From the NCBI RefSeq assembly GCF_002305895.1, contig NZ_CP022203.1:4566501-4630500 (forward strand): a stretch of DNA of 64,000 nt. Reading direction: 5' to 3'. The notes under the pieces were generated by a model. It was not told where the DNA came from, searched no databases, and saw nothing but the letters and a program-made list of their open reading frames with translations. Position numbers and translations under genes: made by a program. Positions 9,001 to 13,760 of the stretch are shown piece by piece (positions within the stretch are counted from its first letter, which is position 1; the number at the start of each line of letters is the position of its first letter). The DNA comes from Corallococcus macrosporus DSM 14697. GTDB taxonomy: Bacteria; Myxococcota; Myxococcia; Myxococcales; Myxococcaceae.

Positions 9001-11657
9001 CGATGCTCGCGGTGGCGATGCCAGAGGCCCAGGTGCGGGAGCTGCTGACGGGCCGGCTGTCGCTGGCGGCCATCAACGCGCCGGACCGCTGCGTCGTCGC
9101 CGGGCCGGTCGCGGAGGTGGAGCGGCTTCAGGAGGCGCTGCGGCTGCGTGAGGTGGGCACGGTACGGATGCCCGCGCCGCACGCGTTCCACTCGGCGGAC
9201 GTGGAGCCGCTGATGCCGGCGCTGGCGGAGGTGGTGGGCTCGCTCCAGCGGCAGGCCCCGACGCTCCGTTATGCCTCCAGCGTCACGGGCCGTTGGGCGC
9301 AGGCGCACGAGCTGGCGCAGCCGGACTACTGGGCGGCCCAGATGCGCCAGCCGGTGCGCTTCACGGAGGCCGTGGGGGCGCTGCTCGAAGAGGGCTGCAG
9401 CCTGGTGCTGGAGGTCGGCCCCGGCCAGGACCTGACGCCGCTGGTGCGGGCCTGCCTGGGACGCGACAGGGAGCGGGTCAAGGCGGTGGCGACGCTGCGC
9501 CGTGGCGGCACGGCGACCGAGCACGGCAGCTTGATGAACGCGGTGGGCGAGCTGTGGACGCTGGGCGTCTCGGTGGATTGGCGCGTCTTCTACGGCCACG
9601 AGCAGCGGCTGCGGCTGCACCTGCCGACGTACCCGTTCCAGGAGAAGCGCTGCTGGGTGGAGGCTCCGGCGCGGCCGACTGCTGCTCCCGCGGTGGGGAG
9701 TGGCGCGACGCTCTCCGGTGCCTCGGTCCAGGCAGCGGGAGCCATCGCGGCGCCCCAGGCCACGTCGCCGCAGCAGGCGGCGCCTTCCGCGACGCCCGAG
9801 CGTGAGGACGCGCCGCGCGGCGACATCGAGGAGCGGCTGGCGGCGCTCTGGCGCGAGCGGCTCGGCCTGCCGTTCGTGGGCCGCGACGACAACTTCCTGG
9901 AGATTGGCGGCAACTCGCTGATGGCCGCCCAGCTCCTCAACCAGGTGCGGTCCACGTTCGGCGTCCAGCTCCCCCTGGCCGCGCTGTTCGAGGCCCCCAC
10001 CGTGGCGGGCATCGCCCAGCGCATCGAGCCGCTGCTGCGGCAAGCCCCTGTCGCCCAGTCCTCGCGCGAGCTGCCCATCGTCCCGCTGCCTCGCGACCAG
10101 CCCCTGCCCCTGTCCTTCGTCCAGGAGCGCGTCTGGCGCCTGGAGCAGCACCTGCCGGGCCTGTCCGCGTACAACATCCCGTTCGTCTTCCGGCTGGAAG
10201 GCGTCGTGGACGCGGTCACCCTGGAGCGCGCCGTCCAGGACGTCATCCAGCGCCATGAGTCGCTGCGGACGACCTACGACGTGGTGGATGGCCGCCCCGT
10301 TCAACGCTTCCACGCGCGGATGCACGTCCCGCTGGTGCGCATCGACGTCGCCGGTACCCCCGAGCAGCGCGAAGCCGAGGCGATGCGGCTGGCGCGCGAG
10401 GACGCCGCGAAGCCGTTCGACCTGGTGAAGGGCCCCGTCGTCCGGACCACGCTGGTCCGGCTCGGCGACAACGAGCACATCCTGCTGGGCAACATCCACC
10501 ACATCGTCAGCGACACGCTGTCCATCAACATCTTCGTCCACGAGCTGTTCCAGACCTACGCCGCCTTCCAGCAGGGCCGCCCGTCTCCCCTGCCGCCGCT
10601 GCCCGTGCAGTACGCGGACTTCGGCGCGTGGCAGCGGCGCGTCGTCGCCGAGGGGCGCCTGCCGGACCAGGAGCAGTGGTGGCGCACCCAGCTCGCCGCC
10701 ATGCCGCGGCAGTTGAACATCGCCACGGACCGGCCGCGCCCCAAGACGAGCCCGCTGACGTCGGTGCGCATGAACGTGTCCTTCTCGGCGGCGCTGTCCC
10801 GCGAGGTGGCGGAGTTCGGCAAGCGCGAGGGCTACACCTCGTACATGATGGTGCTCGCCGGCTGGCAGGCGCTGCTGCACCGCTACAGCGGGCAGACGGA
10901 CATCATCGTCGGCACGCCCATTGGCAACCGCACCCGGCCGGAGCTGCTGCCGCTCATCGGCTACGTGGCGCACTCGGCCGCGTTCCGCACCAGCTTCGCG
11001 GACGACCCGACGTTCCTCGAACTCCTCGCCCGCGTGCGGCAGGAGGTCAACGACGTCCAGTTGCGCCCGGACGTGCCCTTCGAGCACCTCGTGGAGGCGC
11101 TCGTCCCTGGCAAGGACATTGGCCGGGGCCGGCTGACGGACACCATCTTCGTCTTCCACACCACCTTGAGCGGCACGAACGCCGCGCTGGAGCTGACCGG
11201 CGTGCGCGGGACGAAGGTGGAGGTGCCGGACGCCCCGGTGCAGTGGGGCGCGACGCTGTCCGACCTGTCGCTGGTGCTCGGTGACGACGCCGGGCGCATC
11301 AGCGGCGCCCTGGAGTACGCCACCGAGCTGTTCGACGAAGCCACCGCCCGGCGCATTGTGGAGCACCTCCAGGTGCTCCTGGGCTCCGCGCTGGCCCGGC
11401 CGTCGGAGCGCATCTCCCGGTTGCCGCTGGCCACGGACGCGGACCGCGGCGCCTGGCCCGCCCCCTGCCCCGGCCCGTCTCCACGCCGGTGCCGACGCGC
11501 CTGTCCCACCGCGCGTCCCAGCAACCGGGCGTCACCGCCGCGGTTCAGGGCTCGACGTCGTGGACCTGGGGCGACCTCGCCCAGCGTGCGCGCAATGTCG
11601 CCGCGCACCTGCGGGCGCTCGGCGTGCAACCCGGTGAGCCGGTCGCCGTCTGCCTGA
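1..11657 (+). CDS. Hybrid NRPS-PKS megasynthetase, 5' partial, ends by apparent frameshift
   Basis: Builds part of a peptide-polyketide chain on carrier domains. The frame is open from base 3, and the first residues already lie in the C-terminal part of an adenylation (A) domain, so the start is outside the window. Domain order by base: A end (3-330), T (340-560, core GGHSL), C (600-1930, MHHIVSDGW), A (1950-3480), T (3540-3755), C (3800-5130), A (5150-6700), T (6740-6950, LGGTSLS), KS (7040-8320), AT (8600-9600), ACP (9810-10030, IGGNSL), C (10080-11440, HHIVSDTLS). The A domain at 1950-3480 reads D-V-W-H-V-S-L-V-E at the specificity positions, close to Ser codes. The A domain at 5150-6700 (NGYGPTEN type) is not assigned. 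No epimerase or methyltransferase is seen. Family-like sequence stops at about 11446; the last ~70 residues are Arg/Pro-rich, as in out-of-frame translation. The rest of the line continues in the next frame. Confidence 0.93.
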   Translation, partial: QGRVDFQVKLRGFRIELGEIEAALRGHAGVESAIAVVREDVPGDRRLVAYVTPADVETSALREHLRQRLPEYMVPSAVVALAALPLSSNGKVDRKALPAPDLSPTGDTPAEDLPLLQQQLAALFREVLHVDRVGPHDDFFELGGHSLLATQLVTRIRAAFGVEVPLRTLFEAPSLAGLAERIEALMMQSSREAMPPLLPVPRDAALPLSFAQQRLWFLSQFQKGQAVYNVPFALKLSGVLDVDVLRRTFAEVVARHEVLRTSFSATDGLPTQQVQPAPAVWDLPVEDLSSLAEPARDARLRQRMTEEAHFPFNLTVAPLLRTVLLRLDADEHVLLLSMHHIVSDGWSMGVLVREIAVLYAALLEDQPSPLPPLEVQYADFAAWQRQWVESEAIQTQLAELRSHLVGVSALELHGDLGRPATRTVRGSTHDFTVPVALAEALKKVARDQGATLYMVLLAAYEVLLSRYSGQTDFCVGSPIAHRTLSELEPLIGFFVNTLALRARVDGTPTFAELVSRVREESLAAYVRQDVPFDRLVEAIGGERGGGRSPLIQVMFALQNAPMQPPSLPGVTVEPLRSTTDTARLDLTLALRELGDGSLEGALEFSLDLFTPEAGMRLTRHFLTLLEAVVRDPQTRIHALPMLTDDEQQQMLKGFQGRPMAPAGEATIHALLEAQAARTPDAVAVVFESERLTYRELDAKANQVAHHLRGLGVKPESLVGVCLERSVDMVVSLLGVLKAGAAYVPVDPAYPKERLGWMLEDTGASVLLTHEKWKSVLPQSAARVVCLDSAAGEVARQPVTRPDVQVGPESLAYVIFTSGSTGRPKGAMNAHGGVVNRLKWMQEEYGLGSADAVLQKTPFSFDVSVWEFFWPLLAGAKLVVARPGGHQEPAYLVKLMKAEGVTTVHFVPSMLRAFVEEPGLEELASLRRVVCSGEALSAELVKKAYTRLPAPVRVLNLYGPTEAAVEVTYWPCPRGEDFHRVPIGRPVANTALYVLDTHGQPTPIGIPGELHIGGVQVGRGYWQRPQLTAERFIPDAFSGIPGARLYRTGDVARWLPDGTLEYLGRADFQVKLRGFRIELGEIEAALRAHPDVRDAVAVVREDAPGDQRLVAYVTGEPAPDVTALRARLAERLPVHMVPMAIVTLPSLPLSLNGKVDRKALPRPVTTPAPGAVAPPVPERMTPFQQRVATIFRELLHVEHVGLHDDFFALGGHSLLATQVLSRLRSTFGVELSLNALFDAPSVARVTELVEEGMLVRASGPQTPQLRPVPREGNLPPSFAQQRLWLIDQLQPGGSQYNLPAAVRLEGALDTEALRRAVEYLVRRHEPLRTTFVMRDGDPIQVIQPAGEWALPLTDLTGLPQEDREAEARRLASTEAGQPFDLSTGPLLRTLLLKVDAELHVLVLVMHHIVSDGWSFGVIVREVAAAYEAFSQGRSPALPPLPIQYADFAAWQRQWLQGDVLTAQVDWWKAQLAGAPLVLDLPTDKPRTSQRSQFGELVPLHLPQDVVAPLLALARQAGATPYMALLAVWQVLLARYSRQEDLLVGSPIAGRRHGEVEGLVGFFVNTLVLRARVRPKDSFRALLQQVRDTTRAAYEHQDLPFEKLVEELQPRRGLDRNPLVQTYFSLLNTPTGPMQASGLTLRPADVDIGTSRFDLGLALTEDAGGLRGAIEYSTDLFDPATVARIAGHLRVLLASVSASPDQPLGTLELLTPDERQQLLRDWSGPPARYDTADSTIAELIARHAALRPFAVALECGDETLTFEQLDMRANQLANLLRARGVGTEVLVAVSLDRGTEWVVALLAVLKAGGAFVPLDASYPAQRLAIMLEDAPPRLLLTSRANHAKLPLPDAGLPVLLLEALDLSAWPTSPPVSDAGPDNLAYVMFTSGSTGRPKGVGIPHRGVLRLMHSEPFIRFGVRETGLVMAPASFDGSVMELWIPLLNGSRVVLYPPEAQASDLETLSRVVERHGVTLIHFPAGLFSQVVEHRTDLLRKLRAIHVVGDILSAPHTRRTLSTVGVPVSNGYGPTENSIISASYTAYEASQVGASVPIGRPVTDTQAYVLDSQLQLVPVGVPGELYLGGEGLGRGYVSRPDLTAERFIPSPFAARPGERVYRTGDLVRWLPDGTLEFIGRTDNQVKVRGFRIELADVEAALRAQPGVLEAAAVVREDVPGDKRLVAYAMGRDDAPLDVAALRAGMRQQLPEYMVPSVFVVLPALPLSTSGKVDRKALPAPDSASSGREGRFVEPSSALAQQLAALWAKELGTERIGLHDHLFDDLGGTSLSVVRIAKRMRETLNRDVPVVWLFEHPTVDALTAVLERDAKVDEAPTPARPTPAPEASAEARPTTGSGLVAIVGMSGRFPGARSVQDFWRNLREGVESISRFSPEELERLPGLPEGVELSQHPAFVPAGGVLDGIDGFDPGFFDVSLREAQWMDPQQRLFLQTAWSALEDAGIDPERTPEAISLYAGAVDSGYKDAVRATMPLDGAAVFELYGTATHESLATKASFKLGLTGESVLVYTACSTGLVAVHLACQNLLAGRSGVALAGATRIGVPQRTGYVYQEGMILSPDGHCRSFDASAQGTVSGNGVACVVLKRLEDAQRDGDSIYAVIRATATNNDGRYKSGYTAPSVQGQAAVIAQALARSGLRAQDIGYVEAHGTATPLGDPIEVAALQRAYGLGAEHRGTIALASLKSNMGHLDTVAGLAGLMKVALSLHHGEVPPSLHFERPNPQIDFDAGPFFVNTTLRPWPRTDTPRRAAVSSFGIGGTNAHAVLEEPPMAHSGSTTRSHQVITLSARSAEALEAASKQLAGHAEAHAADLSLADVAFTHAVGRKAFEFRRTVVARDAADLTARLRKPYTPVKVTDAEANRRRVAFVFPGQGAQQAGMGRELYEAEPAFRAQVDACLALLAPALQARVREVLFAGPGVDAAAVADTRAALPALFTVEYSLARMWMDWGLKPYAVLGHSFGEYAAACLSGVLSLEDAMRLAVARGELMHRMPPGAMLAVAMPEAQVRELLTGRLSLAAINAPDRCVVAGPVAEVERLQEALRLREVGTVRMPAPHAFHSADVEPLMPALAEVVGSLQRQAPTLRYASSVTGRWAQAHELAQPDYWAAQMRQPVRFTEAVGALLEEGCSLVLEVGPGQDLTPLVRACLGRDRERVKAVATLRRGGTATEHGSLMNAVGELWTLGVSVDWRVFYGHEQRLRLHLPTYPFQEKRCWVEAPARPTAAPAVGSGATLSGASVQAAGAIAAPQATSPQQAAPSATPEREDAPRGDIEERLAALWRERLGLPFVGRDDNFLEIGGNSLMAAQLLNQVRSTFGVQLPLAALFEAPTVAGIAQRIEPLLRQAPVAQSSRELPIVPLPRDQPLPLSFVQERVWRLEQHLPGLSAYNIPFVFRLEGVVDAVTLERAVQDVIQRHESLRTTYDVVDGRPVQRFHARMHVPLVRIDVAGTPEQREAEAMRLAREDAAKPFDLVKGPVVRTTLVRLGDNEHILLGNIHHIVSDTLSINIFVHELFQTYAAFQQGRPSPLPPLPVQYADFGAWQRRVVAEGRLPDQEQWWRTQLAAMPRQLNIATDRPRPKTSPLTSVRMNVSFSAALSREVAEFGKREGYTSYMMVLAGWQALLHRYSGQTDIIVGTPIGNRTRPELLPLIGYVAHSAAFRTSFADDPTFLELLARVRQEVNDVQLRPDVPFEHLVEALVPGKDIGRGRLTDTIFVFHTTLSGTNAALELTGVRGTKVEVPDAPVQWGATLSDLSLVLGDDAGRISGALEYATELFDEATARRIVEHLQVLLGSALARPSERISRLPLATDADRGAWPAPCPGPSPRRCRRACPTARPSNRASPPRFRARRRGPGATSPSVRAMSPRTCGRSACNPVSRSPSA
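1957..3270 (+). repeat. Direct repeat copy 1: predicted Ser A domain
   Basis: About 1.3 kb of DNA nearly identical to 15204-16517, with a constant offset of 13247 and no indel between the ends I checked. It starts 24 bases before the A-domain region beginning FQGRP and ends just after the A8 motif, in RAHP. Differences are scattered single bases, and the specificity code changes only at the last variable position (E here, D in copy 2). Sequence before and after diverges quickly, so it looks like an exchanged A-domain cassette. Confidence 0.9.
7040..10030 (+). other. Minimal PKS module KS-AT-ACP
   Basis: This part of the megasynthetase adds one C2 unit to the peptidyl chain. The ketosynthase has the active-site Cys in TACSTG (about residue 2516 counting from the GTG at base 12) and the two histidines in EAHGTAT and KSNMGH. 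The acyltransferase has GHSFGEY (Ser about 2961) and a HAFH motif, which in this family favours malonyl-CoA over methylmalonyl-CoA. After the AT a Pro/Ala-rich linker leads straight to the carrier domain. There is no KR, DH or ER, so a beta-keto thioester is expected to pass on unless modified by the monooxygenase encoded downstream. Confidence 0.9.

Positions 11658-13760: not shown

What the first reader, a model, noticed from the sequence alone, without database searches (positions are those of the whole stretch)
11445..13760. Oxygenase inside a dead A domain with no carrier domain
A luciferase-like monooxygenase sits in an A domain that has lost the A3 ATP loop, the YGPTE block and the A10 Lys, and no T domain follows. 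In the known MtaG/MelG case the host A domain is active. Here the A remnant may be only a docking scaffold, and the oxygenase must act on a chain held elsewhere, most simply on the preceding ACP.
Basis: partly seen in the sequence, partly recalled or inferred. Interest (0 to 1): 0.72.

Follow-up and report, generated by a model that had tools for sequence, protein, structure and literature searches.

The report
Carrier-less oxygenase module after PKS
A giant peptide-making enzyme of a Myxococcus carries an oxygen-adding domain inside a worn-out activation domain that has no carrier of its own; the same arrangement recurs in many myxobacterial assembly lines, always right after a polyketide module, which suggests it oxidises the chain held on that preceding module.

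Summary
Window 12179-13195 encodes a TIGR04020 luciferase-like monooxygenase (MOX). It sits at the A4-A5 position of an adenylation remnant that has lost A3, the A4 and A7 aspartates, A5 and everything from A8 on, and no carrier domain follows. The ORF boundary near 11460 is a single-base frame break, not architecture: relatives read through as one protein of up to 15,473 aa (probably the myxoprincomide synthetase). The unit is a recurrent cassette, KS-AT-ACP / C(HHxxxDT) / A*-MOX-A* / C-A-T. None of 104 distinct examples has A3, A5, A7, A10 or a carrier motif. Its MOX and its first C domain each form one clade (109/109 and 101/101, support 1.0); MtaG-like units with intact A and carrier lie outside. 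The upstream PKS module shows no reductive domain and its AT is mostly malonyl-type, so the ACP should carry a beta-ketoacyl chain, the substrate MupA requires. The closest solved structure is the PuwE oxygenase domain, which also follows a PKS module. Best reading: a non-elongating module that alpha-oxygenates the chain on the preceding ACP. Two relatives have lost nearly all of the A remnant, so it is not an obligatory docking scaffold.

The parts
7044..8174 (+). Ketosynthase of the preceding PKS module (YTACSTG at 7548)
   Evidence: Pfam ketoacyl-synt and Ketoacyl-synt_C; motif position
8616..9518 (+). Acyltransferase, malonyl-type by its HAFH motif (9180)
   Evidence: Pfam Acyl_transf_1; motif position
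9795..9990 (+). Acyl carrier domain, Ser of GGNS at about 9915; proposed carrier of the MOX substrate (edges approximate)
   Evidence: four PP-binding stretches in ORF1, carrier motif at 9894, serine position
10122..11367 (+). Condensation domain C1 with HHIVSDTL at 10497 (Gly of HHxxxDG replaced by Thr); edges approximate
   Evidence: three Pfam Condensation stretches in ORF1; motif position; C1 clade
11461..11461 (+). Single-base deletion in a C run relative to 12 relatives; splits one protein into two ORFs (mutation or assembly error)
   Evidence: nucleotide alignments; frame-specific GC switch
11489..12178 (+). N-terminal A-domain remnant A*N (A1-A2 region kept; A3 loop and A4 Asp lost)
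12179..13195 (+). MupA/Atu3671-family FMN-dependent luciferase-like monooxygenase (MOX)
   Evidence: TIGR04020 498 bits; PuwE OX domain 6KET E 8.6e-106
13196..13735 (+). C-terminal A-domain remnant A*C (A6 kept; A5, A7 Asp and A8-A10 lost)
13736..13894 (+). Ala/Pro-rich linker where the A C-subdomain and a carrier domain would be; low pLDDT
   Evidence: no PP-binding match in P0001
13895..15150 (+). Condensation domain C2 (HHVISDAW at 14267), proposed to use the oxidised chain (end approximate)
15302..16990 (+). Next A-T module (A3 at 15692, A10 at 16706, carrier motif at 16856); outer edges approximate
   Evidence: motif map; Pfam

Best explanation
The stretch is one non-elongating module of a very large hybrid synthetase, probably that of myxoprincomide. 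The preceding KS-AT-ACP module adds a malonyl unit without reduction, leaving a beta-ketoacyl chain on its ACP (inferred from domains). The C1-A*-MOX-A* unit lacks the motifs to activate an amino acid and has no carrier of its own (shown). MOX, given reduced FMN from a reductase elsewhere, oxygenates the carbon between the ketone and the thioester of the chain on that upstream ACP (inferred from MupA and from placement). C1, which has lost the Gly of HHxxxDG, holds the ACP or the chain for MOX rather than making a peptide bond (inferred, weakest step). C2 then joins the oxidised chain to the amino acid on the next carrier (inferred). The A shell is inherited from an MtaG-like A(MOX)-T module that lost its A C-subdomain and carrier; the MOX insertion site is the same in both kinds (position shown, descent inferred).
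For: 104 distinct units lack A3, A5, A7, A10 and carrier motifs. Every unit with enough flank follows KS-AT-ACP. No reductive domain appears in the window or five diverse lines by Pfam, and no KR-like glycine motif in 92 AT-ACP linkers; carrier serine motif present in 92/92; AT motif HAFH in 87/92. MupA hydroxylates ACP-bound beta-ketoacyl substrates, before transfer past a non-elongating KS0 (PMC10953402). Nearest structure is the PuwE OX domain, placed after a PKS module in puwainaphycin synthesis (PMC4219810). MOX of this kind is one clade 109/109 and C1 101/101, support 1.0. Same insertion site in both kinds, profile position 198 versus 200. dN/dS of MOX 0.04-0.17 and of A* 0.11-0.43.
Against: No product or assay data. 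Carrier identity is inferred from position; the downstream T (16856) is not excluded. C1 keeps both histidines and the aspartate, so it may still be catalytic. The C1 Thr is fixed within one clade, so its 101 copies are one observation, not 101. The window's own gene is frame-broken, so this strain may not make the enzyme intact.
Confidence: 0.7

Rival explanations
1. MOX acts after C2, on the peptidyl chain carried by the next module's T domain (16856), as MtaG acts on a chain held by the carrier of its own module.
For: MOX is embedded in an NRPS module, and in the MtaG type the substrate sits on an NRPS carrier (PMC11342130).
Against: The unit follows a KS-AT-ACP without reductive domains in every case with enough flank, which would be a coincidence if the substrate lay downstream; a whole C-A lies between MOX and that T.
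Confidence: 0.12
2. The unit goes beyond alpha-hydroxylation: repeated oxidation, or a carbon-excising rearrangement, converts the beta-ketoacyl chain into a shortened alpha-keto unit, perhaps with C1 taking part. This refines the best explanation rather than replacing it.
For: From memory, myxoprincomide contains a 2-oxo-beta-leucine unit, one carbon longer than valine rather than two; C1 is always kept and has a fixed active-site change.
Against: The structure could not be checked in the papers held; the amino acid loaded before the PKS module was not predicted with confidence.
Confidence: 0.35
3. C1, not C2, makes the peptide bond with the downstream aminoacyl-T, and C2 is idle.
For: C1 retains HH and D.
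Against: C2 has the more usual HHxxxD[GAS] motif in 101/101, and C1 alone departs to DT.
Confidence: 0.12
4. A decaying relic with no function.
For: A domain core motifs lost; frame break in the window.
Against: MOX and remnants are under purifying selection in the pairs compared and lie in long open frames in relatives; the same unit is kept in several distinct lines.
Confidence: 0.04

Closest known systems
MtaG / MelG embedded monooxygenase (myxothiazol, melithiazol)
   Same: Oxygenase domain inserted inside an NRPS adenylation domain; the intact A(MOX)-T units found here have it between A4 and A5, and the unit studied has it at the same point.
   Different: MtaG type has an active Gly-loading A domain and its own carrier, and cleaves the Gly residue (PMC11342130). 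Here A is dead, its C-subdomain and carrier are gone, and the unit lies mid-line after a PKS module. MtaG and MelG themselves were not aligned.
MupA with the non-elongating KS0 of the mupirocin PKS
   Same: TIGR04020-family oxygenase working at a junction with a non-elongating unit, on a beta-ketoacyl-ACP (PMC10953402).
   Different: MupA is a separate protein in a trans-AT PKS and its partner is KS0; here MOX is built in and its partner is a C domain in a cis-AT hybrid line.
PuwE aminotransferase-oxygenase of puwainaphycin synthesis
   Same: Nearest solved structure (6KET), 43% identical in the structural match; lies between a PKS module and an NRPS module (PMC4219810).
   Different: Described as a PKS module, aminotransferase, oxygenase and NRPS module giving a 3-amino-2-hydroxy acyl unit; no A remnant is described there and no aminotransferase was found here.
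Myxoprincomide synthetase of Myxococcus xanthus (MXAN_3779)
   Same: Single giant hybrid gene at a matching relative place among the clusters (PMC4902038); the same-genus ORF in Myxococcus sp. CA023 is 14,284 aa.
   Different: Identity inferred, not tested against the DK1622 sequence; the window line reads about 15,376 aa, roughly one module longer.

Membership tests
TIGR04020 (MupA/Atu3671 FMN-dependent luciferase-like monooxygenase) | Score over the curated cut-off across the full profile | tested here: met
   498.4 bits against 244.45, profile 1-340 of 341
TIGR04020 (MupA/Atu3671 FMN-dependent luciferase-like monooxygenase) | FMN-dependent oxygenation activity | not testable with these tools
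   Needs purified protein; PERHFH region and over 100 other positions conserved in relatives
MtaG/MelG-type A(MOX)-T unit | MOX inserted within an A domain | tested here: met
   Boundary at profile position 198, against 200 in 31 intact A(MOX) units
MtaG/MelG-type A(MOX)-T unit | Active A domain with A3, A5 and A10 | tested here: not met
   Absent in the window and in 104 distinct units
MtaG/MelG-type A(MOX)-T unit | Own carrier domain after the A domain | tested here: not met
   No PP-binding match; C2 follows directly
MupA-type alpha-hydroxylation bimodule | Beta-ketoacyl-ACP upstream (no reductive domain) | tested here: met
   KS-AT-ACP only in the window and five lines; linker scan of 92. 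The acyl chain itself was not observed
MupA-type alpha-hydroxylation bimodule | Non-elongating KS0 after the oxygenase site | tested here: not met
   A C domain and A remnant stand there instead
Myxoprincomide synthetase | Orthology to MXAN_3779 | not tested
   Inferred from giant single-gene architecture, genus and relative cluster order only

The most novel reading that the evidence does not exclude
The C(HHxxxDT)-A*-MOX unit is an inherited or mobile oxygenation cassette in which a condensation domain has been repurposed to present a beta-ketoacyl-ACP to an embedded oxygenase, or to catalyse a following rearrangement, instead of making a peptide bond.
Probability: 0.3. Interest if true: 0.7.

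Novelty: new variant of a known kind. Interest (0 to 1): 0.48.

Why it matters
If right, it gives a recognisable sequence rule, KS-AT-ACP followed by C(DT)-A*-MOX without a carrier, for predicting an alpha-oxidised unit in myxobacterial peptides, where a module count would otherwise predict an extra amino acid. It also offers a built-in counterpart of the MupA bimodule that can be tested as one polypeptide, and an evolutionary series from intact A(MOX)-T through A* remnants to MOX with the remnant lost.

Tried and rejected
Active but misread A domain: rejected, core motifs absent in the window and in 104 distinct units. Hidden carrier between MOX and C2: rejected at Pfam sensitivity. Two separate genes at 11489/11657: rejected as architecture, since 12 relatives are in frame and differ by one base. 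Relic: disfavoured by dN/dS. Hidden KR in long AT-ACP linkers (up to 342 aa): no KR-like motif in 92 linkers, and Pfam found none in the two longest. Literature check of the myxoprincomide structure and of dead-A oxygenase units: nothing usable in the papers held. A phylum-wide search with the C1-A*-MOX alignment failed on the machine and was replaced by a TIGR04020 search of 195 genomes of the phylum. Searches centred on the two non-myxobacterial loci were not possible; both loci carry the intact A(MOX)-T kind. Only the best 80 of 227 relatives were returned, so the range outside Myxococcota is not settled. A-domain specificity was read by eye only and not used.
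Full report
What is there. The window lies in a Myxococcus genome (G000:C1:4566501-4630500; same-genus matches include M. xanthus AM003 and Myxococcus sp. CA023). Window 12179-13195 encodes a monooxygenase scoring 498 bits against TIGR04020, cut-off 244. It is flanked by two pieces of an adenylation domain.

The A domain is dead, and the sequence shows where. In an alignment of the window with 27 relatives the A3 loop, the A4 aspartate and YGPTE are missing and RTGR stands in place of YRTGD, while A6 is recognisable. A profile built from nine intact A domains of the same protein puts the last matched position of the remnant at a median of 373 of 471, before A8 at 387. The C-subdomain with the A10 lysine is therefore absent rather than mutated. 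No carrier match exists in this stretch; the next domain is condensation domain C2.

The frame break. ORF1 ends at 11657 and ORF2 opens at 11489 in another frame. Third-position GC switches frame near 11450, and an alignment with 12 relatives shows one base missing in a C run at about 11461. Comparison with G001 and G006 gives the same difference. G006 reads through as 15,473 aa and G001 as 14,284 aa. The window gene, counting both frames and the upstream 15.5 kb, comes to about 15,376 aa. I cannot tell mutation from assembly error. A second one-base deletion sits between C1 and MOX of another unit of the same kind in this genome (L085).

Surroundings. The upstream module is KS-AT-ACP with no reductive domain. 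Five diverse relatives give the same by Pfam; in 92 distinct units the AT-ACP linker holds no KR-like glycine motif and the carrier serine motif is present in all. The AT motif is HAFH in 87 of 92, which by established rules means malonyl. Between that ACP and the remnant lies condensation domain C1 with HHxxxDT.

How common. Domain scans of the fetched loci fall into two main kinds. In one, A is intact (A-core 205-246 bits) and a carrier follows, as in MtaG. In the other, A is degenerate (33-74 bits) or absent, no carrier follows, and C1 reads HHxxxDT in every case where it is visible. Of 104 distinct units of the second kind none has an A3, A5, A7, A10 or carrier motif. MOX of this kind forms one clade (109/109) and so does C1 (101/101), both with support 1.0; C2 does not. 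Two of the other C domains in the set share the DT motif. These counts describe one lineage, so the fixed threonine is one event. The record titles that carry the unit are myxobacterial (Myxococcus, Corallococcus, Pyxidicoccus, Archangium, Citreicoccus, one Myxococcaceae MAG), apart from one labelled Comamonas; the two loci from other phyla carry the intact kind.

Evolution. MOX enters at profile position 198 in the degenerate kind and 200 in the intact kind, between A4 (175) and A5 (269), so both probably descend from one insertion. In L069 and L071 the remnant before MOX is gone; L069 keeps a short A7 fragment after MOX and L071 nothing recognisable. Where the remnant persists it is under purifying selection, dN/dS 0.11-0.43 against 0.04-0.17 for MOX in eight pairs.

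Structure. A model of the unit (28-row alignment, mean pLDDT 77.8, pTM 0.65) matches the PuwE oxygenase domain best and then A-domain cores, among them constructs lacking the C-subdomain. A model of C1-A*-MOX from L041 (pLDDT 81.3, pTM 0.65) matches C-A structures. Domain packing at this pTM is not reliable.

Mechanism. MupA hydroxylates beta-ketoacyl-ACP, before the chain passes a non-elongating KS0 (PMC10953402). The PuwE oxygenase lies between a PKS and an NRPS module (PMC4219810). Together with the constant KS-AT-ACP before the unit, this makes oxygenation of the chain on the preceding ACP the most likely step. Shown here: anatomy, recurrence, missing motifs, missing carrier, selection. 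Inferred: substrate, carrier, role of C1, transfer by C2. Whether the reaction stops at hydroxylation is open; my memory of a 2-oxo-beta-leucine in myxoprincomide would point further, but I could not verify it.

Verdict. The docking-scaffold idea is weakened by L069 and L071. It is a variant of known embedded oxygenases that works like a MupA-type bimodule, not a new class.

Noticed in passing
L085 position 7655 (own genome, a second unit of the same kind): A one-base deletion relative to relative G006 (L076) lies between C1 and MOX here too, so at least two such units in this genome are frame-broken in the same segment.
   Followed up: partly
L069 and L071 (G020): C1 is joined to MOX with no A remnant before it; after MOX, L069 keeps a short A7-like fragment and L071 nothing recognisable.
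   Followed up: partly
window 2445, 15692 and upstream -11496: Three A domains of the synthetase are 97-99% identical over 290 residues, and a second pair (-7062, -720) 96.6%, which suggests recent copying between modules.
   Followed up: no
   Followed up: no
L008 and L086 (own genome, about 8.87 Mb): A TIGR04020 protein in a 1181-aa frame with no C, A, KS or carrier match in my scans.
   Followed up: no
L020 (G018): An intact-kind A(MOX)-T unit sits in an 800-aa open frame where relatives have about 2251 aa, so frame breaks occur in other genomes as well.
   Followed up: no
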